A stretch of 9,668 nt of DNA from positions 1-9,668 of the forward strand of contig JAADFV010000026.1 of the NCBI GenBank assembly GCA_013152695.1. Reading direction: 5' to 3'. The translations under genes were made by a program, and so were the position numbers. Shown here in pieces: positions 2,537-9,668 of the stretch (positions are counted from its first letter, which is position 1; each line of letters starts with the position of its first letter). The notes beneath the pieces are model-generated. The model saw only the letters and a program-made list of their open reading frames with translations. It had not been told where the DNA came from and did no database searches. This DNA comes from Chloroflexota bacterium (GTDB lineage Bacteria > Chloroflexota > Anaerolineae > J102).

Positions 2537-3547
2537 TTACATCACTATCTTGGGATTGAGATAAGTGTAGAGAACATCGACAATTAGGTTCATGATTACA
2601 AAAACGAAAGCGTAAACCATTACGGCACCCTGCACCAGGGGGAAGTCGCGGGCGAAAATGGCCTGTACGACCAAACGCCCCAGACCCGGCCAGGCAAAAA
2701 CCGTTTCCACGATCATATTCCCGCCCAAGAGGACGCCAATTTGCAGTCCGACAACGGTTACCGTAGGGATAAGAGCGTTACGCAAGGCATGCTTGATGAT
2801 GACCTTTGTATAGGGCACGCCCTTAGCTCGTGCCAGAAGTACATAATCCTGTCGCAACACTTCCAACATGCTCGAACGCAGAATCCGGGCAACTGTGGCT
2901 GCTACGGCTGCACCCAGGCTTACTGAAGGTAAAACTAAATGTTTGAGACTGCTGACTAAGGCGGGCCAGTTGGAGGTGAGGATGCTATCCAACACATACA
3001 GCCCCGTGATTGATTGCAGTTTAATGTTATGATCCAAACGCCCGGAGACAGGGAGCCAGCGCAGAATTACAGAAAAGATGAGCATAAGGATAATGCCTAG
3101 CCAAAAGGGGGGCATCGAGATGCCCACGAAAGCCCCGGCCATGCTTAACCTGTCTATGGCAGAATTCTGTTTGATAGCGGAGATAATACCAATGGGCATG
3201 GCTACCGCCAGGCCAAAGAGCAGTGCTCCTAAAGCCAACTCGATTGTGGCAGGCAGTCGTTCGGCAATCAGTTTACTTACCGGTGCATGTTTGACAAAGG
3301 AATTACCCAGATCGCCACGGATAGCGTCAGCCAAAAAAATGTAGAGTTGGACGTATAAGGGCTTGTCCAGGTTGAATTCCCGCCGCAGGTTTTCTACTTC
3401 ACCTGCCGATACAAAGCCGGTTTCCCCCATCATGATATCTACGGGATCACCCGGTGTCAGGCGCATAAAAAGAAAAACAATGATAGCCACGACAAACATG
3501 ATGGGGACAACAGCCAGAACCCGCTCTAGGATTTTGATTGCTCTCAT
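2537..3547 (-). CDS. dppB: Peptide ABC transporter inner permease, DppB/OppB type
   Basis: A 336-residue integral membrane subunit, partner of the DppC-like permease. Helix 1 is at about 9-29, followed by the family signature FLFMRLTPGDPVD (25-37) and the external region FNLDKPLYVQLYIFL with GDLGNSF (78-84). Further helices lie near 101-123, 137-163, 205-221, 262-283 and 305-328. The EAA loop contacting the ATPase is at about 234-260 (DYVLLARAKGVPYTKVI...HALRNALIP). The end WPGLGRLVVQAIFARDFPLVQG and YLNP is typical. The open frame extends to 3616, but that would add 23 unlike residues read through an mRNA stem-loop. The ATG at 3547 has AAGGAG (3556-3561) at 8-base spacing and begins the conserved first helix, so I chose it. 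It is separated from the binding-protein gene by a structured 180-base gap. Confidence 0.96.
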   Translation of the reverse strand: MRAIKILERVLAVVPIMFVVAIIVFLFMRLTPGDPVDIMMGETGFVSAGEVENLRREFNLDKPLYVQLYIFLADAIRGDLGNSFVKHAPVSKLIAERLPATIELALGALLFGLAVAMPIGIISAIKQNSAIDRLSMAGAFVGISMPPFWLGIILMLIFSVILRWLPVSGRLDHNIKLQSITGLYVLDSILTSNWPALVSSLKHLVLPSVSLGAAVAATVARILRSSMLEVLRQDYVLLARAKGVPYTKVIIKHALRNALIPTVTVVGLQIGVLLGGNMIVETVFAWPGLGRLVVQAIFARDFPLVQGAVMVYAFVFVIMNLIVDVLYTYLNPKIVM

Positions 3548-3586
3548 ATCACGTACTCCTTTTGGCCAACCGCATAGCAGATGGCC

Positions 3587-3651
3587 GAGAAGCCAGCTTC
3601 CCCTGGTAACACCCAAACCTTCCGGTAAAGTCCCGGGGTGGCTGGCTTCTC
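3587..3651. repeat. Inverted repeat / mRNA stem-loop upstream of the permease gene
   Basis: GAGAAGCCAGC (3587-3597) is perfectly complementary to GCTGGCTTCTC (3641-3651). After two unpaired positions on each side, four more G-C pairs form inward (3600-3603 with 3635-3638), leaving a loop of about 31 bases. In the minus-strand transcript this folds 39 bases upstream of the DppB-like start. No run of U follows it, so it is not a standard intrinsic terminator. Intercistronic stem-loops after binding-protein genes are known to protect the upstream mRNA from 3' decay, and that is the inferred role. Confidence 0.75.
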
Positions 3652-3727: not shown

Positions 3728-5431
3728 TTAACGAGACAGCCAGACATCGTGCATGTTCAAGCGTCCATCGGCGCTGACACGCCAGTTTTGCACATTGGTT
3801 GTGCTCGCTTCGATGATATCCGGTAGAAACAGGAAGACTGCCGGTACCTCTTTGTAGACAATCTGCTGGGCTTCGTTGTAGATTTCGTGACGTTTTTCCA
3901 CATCCGGCTCCACTTCACCTGCTTCGATCAGTTCATCGACACGAGGATTGCTGTAACCGGAGAAGTTGCCGCGCCCATTGCCGGTTCCTTCCACTCTGGT
4001 GTGCCATTTGGCTTCGAAATGCCCTACCGGATCAAAGGCTGAGTCGCCCCAGTCACCGACGTAGGCCGTGCGTTCGCCCTTCAGCATCAAAGGCTTGAGC
4101 ACACTATAGTCTCCCCAGACACGGACAGAGGCATCGATGCCCAGGTCTTGCAACTGTCCGGCAATCGCCTCGGCAATGGCCTTATTACTGGGACGTACAT
4201 CGATGACAAAGGAGAATTTCTCGCCATCCTTATCCAGGAAGCCATCACCATCAGAGTCGGTCCAGCCCGCCTCGGCCAACAAAGCCAGAGCCTTATCGGC
4301 ATCATAGCCATAAGGTTTCAGTGAATGATCGGCAAAATTGTTGTAGGGAGAGAGGGGGCCGGGGATAATGATGCCAAGGCCGCCTAGCACGGTATCGAGA
4401 ATCGTCTGGGCGTCGATAGCGTAGTTCATGGCCAGACGCACACGAATGTCATCGAAAGGCGGTTTGTTGACATTCATTTCCATCCAGGCGGGTCGCGTAC
4501 TGGGCCCGCTGACCACCTGAACAGTAGGATCGGTGGCAAGGACGGGGATCATGTGGGATGGTACTTCTTGGATGATGTTTACTTCGCCGGAACGCAGTGC
4601 CGCCACTCGTGTCGAAGGCTCGGGCAGCACTTTGAAAACGACGCCATCCAGTGGTGCCGGCGCTACAGGCGGCAGTTCGTCGGCGCCGCCATAATACTCA
4701 TCGAAGCGTTCCAACACGATCTGATCGCCAAGAGAACCTTCGACAAACTTAAAGGGGCCTGCCCCTACTGGTGCCTGGTTGAATCCTTCGTTGCCCACTT
4801 CTTCGAAATAGTCTTTGGGGACGATTTGCTGGTGCACGAACATTTGCATGGCAACGGGCCAAGGCGCAGACAGATGGAAACGTACAGTGTAATCATCGAC
4901 AACCTCTACACTCTGCAATGGCGAAATCAGGCCCTTGCGCGGAGAGGTATGGGGCTCGGGATAAGCAATACCATTTTCGGAAATGATACGATCAAAAGTA
5001 AACTTCACATCTTCGGCTGTCAGGTCTTCACCGTTGTGGAAGGTGACGCCTTGTTTAAGCACAAACTCCCACGTAGTATCATCGATCAATTCTGCCGATT
5101 TTGCTAACTCTAGCACTACCCGACCATCGGTGGTGCGGGTAACCAAGCCATCGAACATATTGCGAAGTACTGTTTCCGTGGTTCGGTCGCGGTAATCGGC
5201 GGGGTCGAGTGTTACGATTTCGTCAGCCAGACCAATGGCGATAATTCCTCCCTTTTGAGGGCCGCTTACGGGCGTAGCTGTAACTTCGACAATAGTCTGA
5301 ACTTCCTTCTCGACCACGACTGTTTCTTTGACGACGACCGTTTCTTTGACGGTTTGGGGCGCAGCGCAAGCGCCCAGAGCCGTGATTAATAGCAGTAAAG
5401 CTACGAATAAAATAAACCGATTGGTTCGCAT
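3728..5431 (-). CDS. Lipoprotein substrate-binding protein of a peptide-type ABC importer (SBP family 5)
   Basis: A 567-residue extracytoplasmic receptor that captures the transported compound and delivers it to the permease pair. The N-terminus MRTNRF is followed by a hydrophobic core and the lipobox LGAC with C22 as the predicted lipidated cysteine. Residues 28-54 form a repeated KETVVV linker ending TATP. The mature family-5 fold follows: GGIIAIGLADEIVTLDPADYRD (about 61-82), then WEFVLKQGVTFHNGEDLTAEDVKFTFDRI, the RVAALRSGEVNIIQEVP segment, and VRLAMNYAIDAQTIL. DSDGDGFLDKDGE resembles an acidic calcium-binding loop and is common in this family. The ATG at 5431 has AAGGAGG at 5-base spacing and directly starts the signal peptide. 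Longer in-frame starts at 5527 and 5608 would bury that signal, and the latter would overlap the upstream gene. Family 5 includes peptide, nickel, opine and sugar binders, so the ligand cannot be read from sequence alone. Confidence 0.94.
   Translation of the reverse strand: MRTNRFILFVALLLLITALGACAAPQTVKETVVVKETVVVEKEVQTIVEVTATPVSGPQKGGIIAIGLADEIVTLDPADYRDRTTETVLRNMFDGLVTRTTDGRVVLELAKSAELIDDTTWEFVLKQGVTFHNGEDLTAEDVKFTFDRIISENGIAYPEPHTSPRKGLISPLQSVEVVDDYTVRFHLSAPWPVAMQMFVHQQIVPKDYFEEVGNEGFNQAPVGAGPFKFVEGSLGDQIVLERFDEYYGGADELPPVAPAPLDGVVFKVLPEPSTRVAALRSGEVNIIQEVPSHMIPVLATDPTVQVVSGPSTRPAWMEMNVNKPPFDDIRVRLAMNYAIDAQTILDTVLGGLGIIIPGPLSPYNNFADHSLKPYGYDADKALALLAEAGWTDSDGDGFLDKDGEKFSFVIDVRPSNKAIAEAIAGQLQDLGIDASVRVWGDYSVLKPLMLKGERTAYVGDWGDSAFDPVGHFEAKWHTRVEGTGNGRGNFSGYSNPRVDELIEAGEVEPDVEKRHEIYNEAQQIVYKEVPAVFLFLPDIIEASTTNVQNWRVSADGRLNMHDVWLSR
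5322..5351. repeat. 18-base tandem repeat encoding the lipoprotein linker
   Basis: GTTTCTTTGACG occurs at 5322-5333 and again at 5340-5351, giving an 18-base period. On the coding strand this encodes two successive VKETVV units directly after the lipidated cysteine of the binding protein. It probably arose by small duplication and provides a flexible tether between the membrane anchor and the binding domain. Confidence 0.8.
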
Positions 5432-5436
5432 GTGAG

Positions 5437-5443
5437 CCTCCTT
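5437..5443 (-). promoter_or_regulatory. Ribosome-binding site of the binding-protein gene
   Basis: AAGGAGG on the minus strand lies 5 bases before ATG 5429-5431. It is a full-strength Shine-Dalgarno sequence and fixes the start at the lipoprotein signal peptide. Confidence 0.82.
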
Positions 5444-5524
5444 CACAATAAACGTGTAGACAGTGAGTGTGAGATGGGACAGACGGCAGTTGTAATTCCG
5501 GGAAGACACCCCTTCTTTGTCGTT

Positions 5525-5536
5525 CATGGCCTCCTT
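5525..5536 (-). promoter_or_regulatory. Second in-frame start with its own Shine-Dalgarno-like sequence, upstream of the binding protein
   Basis: The minus strand reads AAGGAGGCCATG (5525-5536). This ATG at 5527 is in frame with the binding protein and would add 32 residues (MNDKEGVSSRNYNC...KEAH) before the lipoprotein signal, with no stop between. The spacing of 2 bases is too short for good initiation. It may be an unused start, a remnant, or a translational enhancer. Confidence 0.4.
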
Positions 5537-5573
5537 AAAGATGATGAGTGGATGTGGAAATAAGGGTGAGAAG

Positions 5574-8500
5574 CTATGCGCGTTGCAGGGCTTTCTCTGC
5601 GACGGCATCTGTCATCTGCAACTGCTGTAACTCACGTTTCATAACGCGCAAGGCGCGTTCGGGTTCCAGACGACCATAAAGGCCGCCCAGGATGCTGACT
5701 AGATAACTGGCGTCCAGCAAGACCTCCCCTTGGGGGCGCAGAATGTGCGGTTCATCTTCGTTATACTGTACGCCTTCGGCGATAAGGCGAAGGTCGTCTA
5801 AATACCCTGGTTCTTGATCGTGGCACTTGTGATAGATCGTGCCACCGATAAGCAACACAGTTGTGGATTGATTGAAAAAATTGACACCATACTGGAGGAA
5901 ATAGGTGTCTGTTTCACGTACCGACCCCACATGTTTGGCCGTGGCCACAGATATGATTTCACGCGCCAGGAAGGAACGAACACTATTCTCTACCGGCCCG
6001 ATAGCATTGGCATGTGGATTAGCGCTGATCCAGCTCAGATAGCGGTCGAGATTCACACGCAGTCGAGAGCCATCCCGTACCGTAAAGCGACCCAACTGGT
6101 CCTTGCCAGGCCGGTAGTGAGGGAATCTGGCAGAAATAAATTGGCTGAGTCGGTAACTGAGATCGCCGTTTTGAAACTGGGGCAGTTCTTTCAAATTTTC
6201 TGCATTATAACTCAAACCGAATTTGCCTTCCACTCGACGATAAGACAGGGGTGTATTGGGTGTTTTGAGAATAGTACGCTTTACTTTTTTACGCGCATCA
6301 TCGCCAGGATAGAGGTAAAGAGGGTTGTCGAGAACCATCGAATAAAAATCTGTTGTTGCGCCACCAATATCCAGAGCGAGGATATTGCCCAGGCCTGGTT
6401 CGTTGCCGTAGCCGTGCGAGAGGAGTTGGATGCCTCGGAAACAGGCGCGAGGGGTGGGGATGAAGGGCGCATCCATATATTCTTCCACCACATCGAAGCC
6501 TTTGCCGCGAATGATGATCGTCTGAAATAGCTCGCGAATCGCCTCGTTGACTACTTCGATACGGAAGTCGTTGATTTCGGGCATTACATTGGGGGTGATG
6601 CGGTAGTCTACATTATTATCCCGACAAATACGTTCGATCTGGGCACGAACATCTCTATTGCCGGCATAGATGAAGGGCACACCGTAATCAGTGTAGGTGG
6701 CAAGATGTGCCGCTTCAGCGAGGAGACGGATGTTGTGAACTTGAGTTTCGCCATCGCCACCATAGTCGACCCCTCCCGTGATCAGGACGATCTCAGGGCC
6801 ATCTTTCAGGAAGATATTTCGAGCTTGTTCCGGTGTTAGTCTGCCTTCATAGGTTCCCACCAACTTGGCTCCGGCCGTCAAAGCAGCTAATTCTGCGGCA
6901 AAACCACTCTCTGCTTTGCTCAGCGATACCGTGACCATTTTTAGGCCTCCCTTGGCACTGGAGCAAGGCAGTCGTATGTCGAATTGTTCCATGGCCGTAC
7001 GTAAGGGCGTCCAATTATAAGTCGGTGCCCCACGGCTGTCTTGGAGACATTGTTCTAACACCCCCATACCGCTGGCCAAGCCGATACGAATATCATCTGG
7101 TGTGGTGGGTACGTAGGTGAGCTGGAAACTATCGTTGTTTGGATCGAAGATGCCCACTTTGGTGTATGTGCTGCCAAAATCTACAACAAGGACCTTACCG
7201 GTGATCTGCTTGCTGATCCCAACTTCCTGACGATATCGTTCTACGGCCTCGGCTGTGATGTCATCATCTTCAGCTTCGTCACTGATGAAGTTTTCGTCAT
7301 CAGCATGGCTGATGTTTTTGTCGAAATACCAGGGAAAACGATTACGCACCAGGTCTACTCGCGCAAATTCGCTGTCAACGGCGATACCGTCCCACTCGTA
7401 GCAACGACACATACCATCGATCACATGGGTGCGGCAGGCTCCCACCAGTTCATAGCGGCGGTCGATAACGGTGATGTGGGGTGCCTGGAACAGCCCCACC
7501 TGCATAGCTAGATCGAGAGTATCGGGGCTGATCATGCCGCATTCACCGCTGGGATAGTTGGCTTCGTCAATGAGATCGAGCAACATGGTCTCAAAGTGGC
7601 GGTCGCCGTTAGCTTCGCTGGCGGGATGGGCCCACTCCCAGAAGTTTTCTACCGTGATCTGACCTTCGTACCCACCCAAGAGAGCTAGATGCAGTAAATT
7701 GTACATTACCGCCTGTTTGAGCTCTAGCTTACGCTCGATGATTTTGGCATCCGCCCAGATGTTAGGCACATCCCCTTTGGCGAAATCATAACACACTTGT
7801 TTGACGATTTCGCACGATTCGATAATGTCGTCGGCAGAAGCCTCATGGTGTGCCTCGGAATGTGTGACGACATGAAGGATGTGTGGTTCCATGTAAAGCT
7901 GGGTGTAAACGCCGAAGGCTAGATGTCCTTTTGCCTCATTGAGGTTGGGGGGAAAGCTGGGAAGTCCGCTACGACATTGGCGGATAACATGGAAATCGAA
8001 ATGCTTTTCTAGGGGCTCGATTAGTTCGCAGGCTGCCTTCATTTTTGCGAGATCATCTAAGGCGCTGATCGAAGGTGGTAGTTCGAACATCTGCTGCATC
8101 ACATAGTTTTTTACACCTAGCTTCTGAGCGATGATGGCCACCAACACATGGTCGGTTGTCTGCATATCGTCGGAAGCATAACGTAATCCCCACTGATGCG
8201 GGTCGTTGATCTCCACGGGCTTGCCCACTTTTACCCAGTAGCGGATGGTGTCGTAGTGTTCGTCGAAGCTATCGCGAATGGAGATAGGCCCACGGCCATC
8301 GACCTCGTTGTAGAAAAAGATCGGCACCGCCGCAAAGGCCATGTTCAGATGTTCCTCCCAAAGTTTGGCCAGCTCCACCAATTCATCGGTACCGGTGTAA
8401 ATACGCGTGAGGGGGTAATTCCCCCGTTTGCTTGCTGCTTTTAAACGTTTCAGGTCGGCGATGGTGCGAATGGGGGCGCCACCTTGTCCCGCCAGATATT

Positions 8501-9329
8501 TACTGGGGTCTTCCTCTCCCCGGATAAACTTGGCAAGCAATTCTTGCGCAGTTTGGTCCGGCGCCAGGGAGACGATCTCGAAGGTGGCAGCTTCAGCCAG
8601 CTTCTCGATCGCCTTGATCGTGGGTTCGATGGTTCCGGCGGCAATACCGATATGGGCACGAATAATGGGGCGGTTTTCCCGTTCTTTCACCTGTTGGATG
8701 CGTTCCAGCAAATTGTCGGACCAGGGTTCCTCTTCCTCAGTAACGTGGCTGGTCGTGCGCCCGGAAGCAAATTCTTCCAGTTCTGCCATGCTGATATAGT
8801 CGTCGGCCACGAGGTCGAAGAAGCCCTGGAAGTGTTCTCGATCGGCAAACTCGATGCGGACATCGTCCAGATCATAGTTGCGTTCTTCTTCACGCCCGAA
8901 ACGATCCTCTTCCAAGGGCAAACCGGTCATGGCTCTGACCACGTTGGCGGCAGGCCGGAGGCCACTAAAAGCATAACGGATGCCGCTATCCCTAGGATGT
9001 AATCCGTAGATCGTGGCTTTGTCGATGAATTCGCTGATGAGCTTGTCTACGTGCAGATCACCTAAGCGCATAGAGATACCAACGATTTCGGGGCGCGCTT
9101 CTCGCACCTTTCCGATCACTTCCTCGATAGGTACTGCCGGTCCAAGCTTGACCGCAACAAAACCTTCGCCCCGGTCTTGCATCCAGTCGGCAAAGTTCTC
9201 GACACCTAAGTTGTGAACGCACTTGCCGATGGCGCCTACCATGACCCGGCGTTTGTATTGTTGCTCAGATGAGACCGACTGATCGATCGATTGCGCAGAA
9301 TTTGTTTGCTGCGGGATTTCATCACTCAT
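5574..9329 (-). CDS. Three-domain fusion: B12-binding-like, glutamate-mutase E-like barrel, and MutL/GlmL ASKHA ATPase
   Basis: A cytoplasmic protein of 1251 residues, here read as a self-contained cobalamin-dependent carbon-skeleton mutase with its own reactivating ATPase. After a polar tail (1-27), residues 28-137 form a Rossmann-like domain resembling B12-binding subunits. GKCVHNLG (35-42) sits at the DxHxxG position and keeps the cobalt-ligand histidine (H39), but C37 replaces Asp; FSG (121-123) replaces the later GG. An acidic linker follows. Residues about 216-670 resemble the glutamate mutase E-subunit barrel: TRIYTGTD (308-315) matches the Arg-containing ARHGTPD loop, and THSEA (489-493) matches KTPHEA. 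A second acidic linker spans 676-691. Residues 712-1251 are a full MutL domain with phosphate loops VVDFGSTYTKV (715-725) and LALDIGGATTDFYS (984-997), and LLIGGT (1159-1164). The ATG at 9329 has GAGAGG 9 bases upstream. The MutL part is firm, the E-like part good, the B12 domain probable; the substrate is unknown. Confidence 0.85.
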   Translation of the reverse strand: MSDEIPQQTNSAQSIDQSVSSEQQYKRRVMVGAIGKCVHNLGVENFADWMQDRGEGFVAVKLGPAVPIEEVIGKVREARPEIVGISMRLGDLHVDKLISEFIDKATIYGLHPRDSGIRYAFSGLRPAANVVRAMTGLPLEEDRFGREEERNYDLDDVRIEFADREHFQGFFDLVADDYISMAELEEFASGRTTSHVTEEEEPWSDNLLERIQQVKERENRPIIRAHIGIAAGTIEPTIKAIEKLAEAATFEIVSLAPDQTAQELLAKFIRGEEDPSKYLAGQGGAPIRTIADLKRLKAASKRGNYPLTRIYTGTDELVELAKLWEEHLNMAFAAVPIFFYNEVDGRGPISIRDSFDEHYDTIRYWVKVGKPVEINDPHQWGLRYASDDMQTTDHVLVAIIAQKLGVKNYVMQQMFELPPSISALDDLAKMKAACELIEPLEKHFDFHVIRQCRSGLPSFPPNLNEAKGHLAFGVYTQLYMEPHILHVVTHSEAHHEASADDIIESCEIVKQVCYDFAKGDVPNIWADAKIIERKLELKQAVMYNLLHLALLGGYEGQITVENFWEWAHPASEANGDRHFETMLLDLIDEANYPSGECGMISPDTLDLAMQVGLFQAPHITVIDRRYELVGACRTHVIDGMCRCYEWDGIAVDSEFARVDLVRNRFPWYFDKNISHADDENFISDEAEDDDITAEAVERYRQEVGISKQITGKVLVVDFGSTYTKVGIFDPNNDSFQLTYVPTTPDDIRIGLASGMGVLEQCLQDSRGAPTYNWTPLRTAMEQFDIRLPCSSAKGGLKMVTVSLSKAESGFAAELAALTAGAKLVGTYEGRLTPEQARNIFLKDGPEIVLITGGVDYGGDGETQVHNIRLLAEAAHLATYTDYGVPFIYAGNRDVRAQIERICRDNNVDYRITPNVMPEINDFRIEVVNEAIRELFQTIIIRGKGFDVVEEYMDAPFIPTPRACFRGIQLLSHGYGNEPGLGNILALDIGGATTDFYSMVLDNPLYLYPGDDARKKVKRTILKTPNTPLSYRRVEGKFGLSYNAENLKELPQFQNGDLSYRLSQFISARFPHYRPGKDQLGRFTVRDGSRLRVNLDRYLSWISANPHANAIGPVENSVRSFLAREIISVATAKHVGSVRETDTYFLQYGVNFFNQSTTVLLIGGTIYHKCHDQEPGYLDDLRLIAEGVQYNEDEPHILRPQGEVLLDASYLVSILGGLYGRLEPERALRVMKRELQQLQMTDAVAEKALQRA

Positions 9330-9422
9330 AAAAGTGTACCTCTCGAATTATTGGTCACAAAGGAGATGACAGTGCTGCTCTCCAGGGAGGTGGTGAGGGA
9401 AAAGATTCTCTGATCTTCGTGT

Positions 9423-9668
9423 TTAGTCAAACAATAGTAAATCGCCAAAGCGATAGGCGGCATCTACATCACGAAGAGCTTGCATGGTTTCATCCGGGCG
9501 CAAATGCGACAACATAACCAATAGAGCGTTGGCCATAGCCGTCATGCCCGAGAGGGGCAGAGTATGGGCGACCCCTTCTGTAGGTGTAATAAAGATGTAA
9601 TCGGCGCGCGTAGCCAGGGGAGATACCGGACTGTCTGTGATGGCAATGCACCGCGCTCCCCGCTTTTT
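9423..9668 (-). CDS. SIS-domain protein, probably the C-terminus of an RpiR-type regulator (5' end outside window)
   Basis: Only the last 81 residues are present, ending at TAA 9423-9425. They read RGARCIAITDSPVSPLATRADYIFITPTEG followed by a helical tail ending RFGDLLLFD. The pattern A-I-T-D-S-P-x-S-P-L-A-x-x-A-D is the second half of a SIS (sugar isomerase) fold, as found in RpiR/MurR transcription factors, where it senses phosphosugars or similar ligands. The N-terminal helix-turn-helix that would prove a regulator is off the window, so a stand-alone SIS isomerase cannot be excluded. It lies 93 bases upstream of the mutase-like gene on the same strand, with no clear terminator between, so it may belong to the same operon and control it. 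Confidence 0.75.
   Translation of the reverse strand, partial: KKRGARCIAITDSPVSPLATRADYIFITPTEGVAHTLPLSGMTAMANALLVMLSHLRPDETMQALRDVDAAYRFGDLLLFD

What the first reader, a model, noticed from the sequence alone, without database searches (positions are those of the whole stretch)
5574..9329. All-in-one cobalamin mutase: S-like, E-like and MutL chaperone domains in one chain
Glutamate mutase is normally encoded as three genes: a small B12-binding subunit, a catalytic E subunit, and MutL/GlmL, an ASKHA ATPase thought to load or repair the enzyme. Here all three appear in fixed order in one 1251-residue reading frame joined by acidic linkers. The only well-known analogue is IcmF, where the chaperone is a G-protein rather than an ASKHA ATPase. 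A covalent ASKHA reactivase would guarantee 1:1 stoichiometry and suggests a distinct, little-described mutase class.
Basis: partly seen in the sequence, partly recalled or inferred. Interest (0 to 1): 0.85.

Follow-up and report, generated by a model that had tools for sequence, protein, structure and literature searches.

The report
B12 mutase fused to its repair ATPase
One long bacterial protein joins a vitamin-B12-binding part, a radical-mutase barrel distantly related to glutamate mutase and an ATP-driven helper that normally comes as a separate protein; relatives occur in many phyla beside an opine-dehydrogenase gene, which points to an unstudied B12 enzyme of amino-acid metabolism.

Summary
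The 1251-aa frame is real. 450 homologues were found; the 120 listed align over 96-100% of it. Residues 27-150 are a B12-binding domain with Cys where DxHxxG has Asp. Residues 713-1234 are MutL/GlmL (E 2e-80). The middle domain matches no family alone, but a profile of its relatives aligns with glutamate mutase E (E 1e-7 to 3e-8, 366-391 columns), not with methylmalonyl-CoA mutase or lysine aminomutase. Glutamate mutase E and methylmalonyl-CoA mutase score about the same against each other, so this looks like a mutase family of its own. A two-domain form lacks MutL; fused and two-domain rows part on one fully supported branch. Both sit beside an opine-dehydrogenase gene (36 of 39 fused, 17 of 19 two-domain loci with flanks), missing from the window's locus. 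The glutamate-binding arginines align to other residues, and methylaspartate ammonia-lyase is strong in only 3 of 23 fused genomes, so probably not ordinary glutamate mutase. Substrate unknown; a glutamate- or opine-type amino acid is my guess. New variant of a known kind.

The parts
5574..9329 (-). fused S-E-MutL protein, 1251 aa
   Evidence: full-length homologues
8880..9251 (-). B12-binding (S-like) domain, residues 27-150
   Evidence: PF02310 28-88 sub-threshold; family profile hits corrinoid proteins, GlmS, OraE and lysine aminomutase beta chains
9204..9221 (-). C37-V-H39-N-L-G42, counterpart of the DxHxxG motif with Cys in place of Asp
   Evidence: Cys at this place in 119 of 120 fused homologues (Ala in one); Cys 29, Asp 2, Phe 1 of 32 two-domain relatives
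7329..8684 (-). GlmE-like catalytic domain, residues 216-667
   Evidence: hhalign with GlmE, Prob 94-95, E 1.3e-7 to 2.7e-8, 366-391 columns; PF06368 on two-domain relatives
7194..7328 (-). acidic linker between E-like and MutL domains, residues 668-712
5628..7193 (-). MutL/GlmL ASKHA-type domain, residues 713-1234, with DFGSTYTK (from D717) and DIGGATTDF (from D987)
   Evidence: PF13941 E 2.1e-80, full profile; NF040745 GlmL 265 bits, below its cut-off of 475; like motifs in free GlmL
9423..9668 (-). C-terminal end of an RpiR-type (HTH_6 + SIS) regulator
   Evidence: 80 of 81 residues identical to L001 2150-3016, which carries HTH_6 and SIS
9330..9422 (.). short spacer where the nearest relative L001 carries a ~1.2 kb opine-dehydrogenase gene
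   Evidence: window matches L001 up to the RpiR stop, over 25 bases at the mutase start, and again from about codon 25 of the mutase
3728..5431 (-). oligopeptide-type ABC solute-binding lipoprotein; likely start at 5431 (MRTNRF..LGAC) rather than the ORF start 5608
   Evidence: SBP_bac_5 E 1.3e-88; the start is inference from the lipobox and homologue lengths
2537..3616 (-). ABC permease, OppB/DppB type
   Evidence: PF00528, PF19300
1559..2485 (-). ABC permease, OppC/DppC type
   Evidence: PF00528, PF12911
514..1566 (-). ABC ATPase, OppD/DppD type
   Evidence: PF00005, PF08352
2..463 (-). ABC ATPase, second (OppF position), cut by the window end
   Evidence: PF00005

Best explanation
The gene encodes an adenosylcobalamin-dependent carbon-skeleton mutase in one chain. 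The N-terminal Rossmann-type domain holds B12 base-off through His39, the middle barrel binds substrate and lets the 5'-deoxyadenosyl radical rearrange its carbon skeleton, and the C-terminal MutL domain uses ATP to open the S-E interface and swap out damaged cobalamin, as separate reactivases are thought to do in trans. It works in a catabolic operon: an RpiR regulator and an Opp-type importer bring in small peptide-like or opine-like compounds, and an opine-dehydrogenase partner (missing from this locus, adjacent in most relatives) makes or uses the mutase's substrate or product. The substrate is most likely a glutamate-type amino acid in unusual form (D-, beta-, gamma-linked or N-carboxyalkyl glutamate) rather than free L-glutamate. 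Shown here: domain content, homology, conserved partner gene, one-branch split of fused and two-domain forms. Inferred: the folds, AdoCbl chemistry, reactivation by MutL, catabolic direction, and substrate (substrate confidence about 0.3).
For: B12 domain: family profile to corrinoid proteins 1.9e-9, GlmS 3e-4; S part matches the B12 part of OraE-like rows at E 4.5e-7. Barrel: GlmE E 1.3e-7/2.7e-8 over 366-391 columns; MCM 0.094, KamD 0.074, and the ten other families and two reversed controls between 0.024 and 0.38. PF06368 precomputed on 35 of 120 listed homologues of the E domain, over its cut-off on P0163 but just under it on P0168 and under it on P0161. MutL: PF13941 2e-80, ATPase motifs like those of GlmL. 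AdoCbl: a corrinoid adenosyltransferase (PF02572) directly after the fused gene in L038 and its cluster mate in L029. Partner: opine dehydrogenase within 300 bases in 34 of 37 fused loci plus both loci whose fused frame is broken (L015, L045), and in 17 of 19 two-domain loci with 1.5 kb flanks (which counts L015 and L045 as standalone and so prints 19 of 21). Glutamate theme: D-glutamate cyclase PF14336 in L037 and its cluster mates L029, L036, L038, glutamate 2,3-aminomutase in L034 over its cut-off, gamma-glutamyltransferase over its cut-off and an Orr-like racemase below it in L025, peptidase C26 in L034.
Against: No structure could be predicted. Asp of DxHxxG is Cys in nearly all members, so B12 binding may be altered. 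GlmE's claw arginines, E171 and Y177 are not aligned to like residues, so radical chemistry on an amino acid is inferred from ancestry. The glutamate-theme neighbours are few; the four D-glutamate cyclase loci lie within one clade of the tree. AsnB beside some two-domain loci suggests a biosynthetic rather than catabolic role there. The window itself and three of 37 fused loci lack the adjacent dehydrogenase. 17 of 19 further genomes with the two-domain form carry some MutL gene elsewhere, so MutL need is not settled.
Confidence: 0.7

Rival explanations
1. It is an ordinary glutamate mutase (L-glutamate to 3-methylaspartate) whose three genes fused.
For: Closest catalytic family is GlmE; MutL scores highest against the GlmL model; D96 and E330 of GlmE align to invariant D258 and E492; arginines R224 and R309 lie two residues before the aligned claw positions.
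Against: Claw R66, R100, R149 (named in PMC9545868, passages read) align to His226, Gln262, Tyr311, at middling confidence. Methylaspartate ammonia-lyase (PF07476) is strong (E<1e-80) in 3 of 23 fused and 0 of 11 two-domain genomes; six more of the 34 pass the cut-off weakly (27-85 bits), but the model also rings in 11 of 14 control genomes. Two fused genomes (G004, G092) carry a separate true GlmE as well.
Confidence: 0.13
2. It is a corrinoid methyltransferase, as the label 'methionine synthase' on many named two-domain relatives says.
For: The B12 domain scores best against methyltransferase-type corrinoid proteins; source names; MttB-like genes within the fetched flanks of 4 of 64 loci.
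Against: The barrel aligns with the radical mutase GlmE, not with MttB (0.024, 26 columns); other MutL genes lie next to GlmE (the loci) and next to OraE-like genes in G049 and G057; adenosyltransferase neighbour.
Confidence: 0.08
3. MutL here is not a reactivase but an ATP-driven switch or loader, for example gating delivery of AdoCbl from the adenosyltransferase.
For: GlmL's reactivating role is a literature assignment (legend in PMC4682846, passage read; the reference given there is on diol dehydratase), not demonstrated here; adenosyltransferase gene beside two fused loci.
Against: None direct; the two roles overlap, as in the G-protein chaperones that both deliver and help remove cobalamin (start of the abstract of PMC10481361).
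Confidence: 0.2
4. The fusion is an assembly or gene-calling artefact.
For: Two loci have the frame broken (L015, L045).
Against: Frames that join S-E to MutL without a stop in 51 loci of titled records from about ten phylum-level groups, six of them cut by a contig end, and the 120 listed proteins.
Confidence: 0.01

Closest known systems
Glutamate (methylaspartate) mutase GlmS + GlmE with GlmL/MutL
   Same: Same three building blocks; profile homology of the barrel, B12 domain and MutL
   Different: One chain in order S-E-L; barrel as far from GlmE as MCM is by score; claw arginines not aligned; opine-dehydrogenase partner, ammonia-lyase strong in few genomes; Cys for Asp in DxHxxG
IcmF (isobutyryl-CoA mutase fused to its G-protein chaperone)
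   Same: Works like it in plan: B12 mutase and its maintenance NTPase in one chain (the IcmF fusion seen as a reference title in PMC10481361)
   Different: IcmF's chaperone is a G protein and its mutase is of the acyl-CoA type (recalled beyond that title); here a MutL ASKHA-type domain and a GlmE-like barrel
OraE/OraS ornithine aminomutase with OR-4 (GlmL-related)
   Same: B12 domain similarity (E 4.5e-7); the model NF040744 for OR-4 hits the MutL domain at 154 bits, below its cut-off of 600; MutL genes next to OraE-like genes in G049 and G057
   Different: Ornithine aminomutase needs PLP (start of the abstract of PMC3958899); only its B12 part aligned here
Opine dehydrogenases (octopine DH; Arthrobacter CENDH)
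   Same: The partner gene: a fused-clade copy (L034) hits octopine DH 3c7a at 9e-68, a two-domain-clade copy (L093) hits 1bg6 at 1.7e-75
   Different: No link to a B12 mutase found in print (no held paper contains both 'opine dehydrogenase' and 'glutamate mutase')

Membership tests
Glutamate mutase (GlmS/GlmE) | barrel homologous to GlmE (PF06368) | tested here: met
   Only by family profile (E 1.3e-7 to 2.7e-8); the window's own sequence has no PF06368 hit
Glutamate mutase (GlmS/GlmE) | arginine claw R66/R100/R149 for glutamate | tested here: inconclusive
   Aligned to His/Gln/Tyr at per-column confidence 6-7 of 9; Arg two residues earlier at two of the places; no structure
Glutamate mutase (GlmS/GlmE) | pathway partner methylaspartate ammonia-lyase | tested here: not met
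   Strong match in 3 of 23 fused genomes; weak ones in others cannot be told from other enolase-like proteins; genomes may be incomplete
B12-binding domain (base-off/His-on) | DxHxxG motif | tested here: not met
   His and Gly kept, Asp is Cys in 119 of 120; profile homology to the fold met
MutL/GlmL (PF13941) | full-length match and ATPase phosphate motifs | tested here: met
   271 bits, 1-450 of 450; DFGSTYTK and DIGGATTDF against DFGSTYTK (4 of 4 shown) and D[IV]GGATTDV (3 of 4 shown) in free ones
GlmL equivalog (NF040745) and TIGR01319 | score over curated cut-off | tested here: not met
   265 of 475 and 173 of 204 bits
AdoCbl carbon-skeleton mutase | AdoCbl binding and radical rearrangement | not testable with these tools
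   needs protein
AdoCbl carbon-skeleton mutase | TIM-barrel fold | not tested
   structure prediction switched off
IcmF-type mutase-chaperone fusion | G-protein domain | tested here: not met
   No such hit among the three Pfam families up to E 1; chaperone domain is MutL

The most novel reading that the evidence does not exclude
A third major family of B12 carbon-skeleton mutases, as distant from glutamate mutase as methylmalonyl-CoA mutase is, that together with an opine dehydrogenase runs an undescribed pathway for opine- or D-/beta-glutamate-type compounds in Chloroflexota, Asgard archaea and others, one branch of which built its ATP-driven reactivase into the enzyme.
Probability: 0.4. Interest if true: 0.82.

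Novelty: new variant of a known kind. Interest (0 to 1): 0.62.

Why it matters
How MutL/GlmL works is, as far as I recall, poorly known, because enzyme and helper are separate proteins that must find each other. A covalent version gives one polypeptide in which ATP use, cobalamin exchange and mutase turnover can be measured together, with a natural two-domain sister family as control. The constant opine-dehydrogenase neighbour gives a concrete lead to a new B12 reaction and to how Chloroflexota and Asgard archaea handle unusual amino acids.

Tried and rejected
Sequence search of the PDB found nothing for the barrel and nothing credible for the MutL domain (protoglobin at E 0.3, taken as chance). 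A first hhalign with a shallow GlmE set gave no hit with the fused E domain alone (E 0.36) and E 7.8e-4 with the S-E set; it became convincing only with deeper sets (E 3.4e-5, E 1.3e-7). An hhalign run with a wrong option (end) and a residue map made with wrong match columns (second half) were discarded; the map used is. A weak PF06368 hit alone is not proof: a true methylmalonyl-CoA mutase (L121) scores 22.7 bits, which is why MCM and KamD were compared. The idea that two-domain forms live without any MutL was tested and weakened: 4 of 6 genomes have none, but 17 of 19 have one somewhere, in four of them 21-29 kb from the S-E gene on the same contig (compare). Eight paper searches listed no paper that by its title or abstract start describes a mutase-MutL fusion or a mutase-opine-dehydrogenase pair; only open-licence papers are held and most listed papers were not opened. 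Plasmid records hold no relative of the barrel at E 1e-5. Asparagine synthase beside some two-domain loci was not followed further.

The tree used 30 fused and 32 two-domain rows; duplicates, many close Chloroflexota rows, contig-truncated rows and broken frames were left out, the root is a midpoint, several two-domain rows have long branches, and no GlmE outgroup was used, so fusion rather than fission is inferred. The MutL tree used only 9 of 20 free MutL frames (those in which my motif was found) and carries long-branch warnings. In one search two loci gave no S-E frame: L121 holds a methylmalonyl-CoA mutase, and in L097 the ORF picker chose an antisense frame; L097, and L116 and L117 which were outside that call, were recovered, all three with an adjacent opine dehydrogenase but not added to the counts.
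Full report
WHAT IS THERE. The minus strand holds one frame of 1251 codons at 5574-9329. Pfam gives MutL PF13941 over its whole length at residues 713-1234 (E 2.1e-80) and a sub-threshold B12-binding match at 28-88; nothing in the middle. NCBIfam gives GlmL-family models below their cut-offs. The chain is conserved: 450 proteins match and the 120 listed are all full-length fusions; where a source names the organism it is Chloroflexota (Anaerolineae, Caldilinea), and the protein is called 'glutamate mutase L', 'TIGR01319 family' or hypothetical. In these 121 sequences the mean share of the commonest residue per column is highest in residues 216-520 (0.91) and in the S domain (0.88).

THE B12 DOMAIN. 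A profile of 32 S-E sequences (A3) hits corrinoid proteins of the PDB at 1.9e-9 and, further down, lysine aminomutase beta, glutamate mutase S and ornithine aminomutase E. His39 and Gly42 of the classic DxHxxG motif are kept but the Asp is Cys in 119 of 120 fused homologues; two of 32 two-domain relatives (L061, L122) keep Asp.

THE CATALYTIC DOMAIN. Searching with the middle domain alone (A1) brought in proteins of about 580 aa that hold S and E only, at 36-43% identity, the named ones mostly from Asgard archaea; 35 of the 120 listed rows carry PF06368, the glutamate mutase E family. On scanning three of them, P0163 passes the Pfam cut-off (27.5 against 26.6 bits) and P0168 (25.2) and P0161 (21.6) do not. 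In a PF06368 scan of 119 genomes of the phylum of G004 (L027's genome, titled Clostridiales), the nine weak hits of 18-31 bits proved to be eight members of the same S-E family (L116-L120, L122-L124) and one methylmalonyl-CoA mutase (L121). Profile against profile, 117 S-E rows and 30 GlmE rows align over 366-391 columns at E 1.3e-7 and 2.7e-8 (either order). The same S-E profile gives 0.094 with methylmalonyl-CoA mutase, 0.074 with lysine aminomutase alpha, and 0.024 to 0.38 with ten unrelated families; reversed S-E gives 0.15 with GlmE and 0.049 with methylmalonyl-CoA mutase. As a yardstick, GlmE against methylmalonyl-CoA mutase gives 8.1e-8. So the domain belongs with GlmE but at a distance like that between GlmE and methylmalonyl-CoA mutase.

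ACTIVE SITE. PMC9545868 (passages read) names R66, R149 and R100 as the claw, with E171 and Y177. They align to window H226, Y311, Q262, A333 and F339 (confidence 4-7 of 9); the first three are invariant in A3. R224 and R309, also invariant, lie two residues before two of the places. GlmE D96 and E330 align to invariant D258 and E492. Whether an arginine claw survives in a shifted register needs a structure.

THE MUTL DOMAIN. It has DFGSTYTK and DIGGATTDF; of four free MutL proteins printed, all have DFGSTYTK and three D[IV]GGATTDV. Free ~450-aa MutL frames beside GlmE (18 loci) score 139-217 bits with the fused MutL profile; in a quick tree of 29 fused and 9 free rows the fused domains are one side of a branch with support 100.

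DISTRIBUTION AND HISTORY. One scan of GTDB species genomes gave 64 loci. By record title, fused frames occur in Chloroflexota, Bacillota, Bipolaricaulota, Atribacterota, SAR324, Desulfovibrio, Spirochaetales, Aerophobetes, Actinomycetota and one Lokiarchaeota bin whose 3.7-kb contig nests with Atribacteria and may be misbinned. So in that sample the two-domain form is the commoner one, whereas the pattern scan favoured fused ones. Fused and two-domain rows separate on one fully supported branch (30 and 32 rows).

THE PARTNER GENE. The commonest neighbour is an opine dehydrogenase (PF02317). Of loci with 1.5 kb on both sides it lies within 300 bases in 34 of 37 fused loci (not in L002, L003, L022) and, in the call's standalone class, 19 of 21 (not in L094, L118); two of those 21 are L015 and L045, fused genes with a broken frame, so 36 of 39 and 17 of 19. 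Where it lies that close, it is on the same strand in 45 of 45 fused-type loci (broken and cut ones included) and 22 of 24 two-domain loci, with median gaps of 42 and 10.5 bases. The copies tested differ in kind: octopine-dehydrogenase-like in the fused L034 (9e-68) and CENDH-like in the two-domain L093 (1.7e-75), so the link has been kept or made anew. The window lacks it: it matches L001 up to the RpiR stop, over 25 bases at the mutase start, and again from about codon 25 on, while L001 has 1.2 kb with the dehydrogenase between. In L002's and L003's genomes a 57% and 49% identical copy lies elsewhere; in L022's and L020's only weaker matches.

SETTING. In the 37 fused loci with flanks, up to 10 kb each side, SBP, OppB and OppC genes occur in 28 each, OppD/F in 25, RpiR in 17, a C45-type acylase in 15, GntR in 8, TRAP parts in 5. 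Rarer neighbours touch glutamate: D-glutamate cyclase (L037 by Pfam, cluster mates L029, L036, L038), glutamate 2,3-aminomutase (L034), gamma-glutamyltransferase and, below cut-off, an Orr-like racemase (L025), an epimerase of the Ala-D/L-Glu type below cut-off (L029), peptidase C26 (L034). A corrinoid adenosyltransferase follows the gene in L038 and its cluster mate in L029. Methylaspartate ammonia-lyase is strong in 3 of 23 fused and 0 of 11 two-domain genomes; six more of the 34 pass its cut-off weakly. No true GlmE was found in 21 of the fused genomes (two weak hits, one just over the cut-off, in 552-579-aa frames not examined); two others, G004 and G092, have one. Completeness of these genomes is not known.

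VERDICT. A real and widespread B12 mutase-type protein with a built-in MutL, in a catalytic family of its own near glutamate mutase, tied to opine dehydrogenases. It works like IcmF in plan; it is not a member of IcmF, and is not shown to be a glutamate mutase. Fold, substrate, chemistry and reactivation are inferred.

Noticed in passing
window 9330-9422: The opine-dehydrogenase gene present between RpiR and mutase in the closest relative L001 is missing here; 1.2 kb replaced by about 80 unrelated bases.
   Followed up: yes
L093, L059: Asparagine synthase next to the opine dehydrogenase of a two-domain locus (L093, true AsnB by NCBIfam) or next to S-E (L059, Pfam); similar-sized genes at the same place in L098, L102, L104 were not annotated.
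   Followed up: partly
Partner enzyme unknown.
   Followed up: partly
L015 9344-11230 and 11234 on; L045 7510-9141 and 9090 on: Fused gene split into two frames; in L045 near a run of G, so probably a sequence error.
   Followed up: partly
L042: Fused gene in a Lokiarchaeota bin is close to an Atribacteria sequence; likely misbinned or recent transfer.
   Followed up: no
window 3728-5608: The listed ORF start of the solute-binding protein overlaps the mutase; the lipoprotein start at 5431 is more likely.
   Followed up: no
L023: A second opine-dehydrogenase-like gene and a C45 acylase just upstream of the fused mutase and its own dehydrogenase.
   Followed up: no
G049, G057: MutL genes next to OraE-like genes, showing that the MutL family serves more than one B12 mutase.
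   Followed up: no
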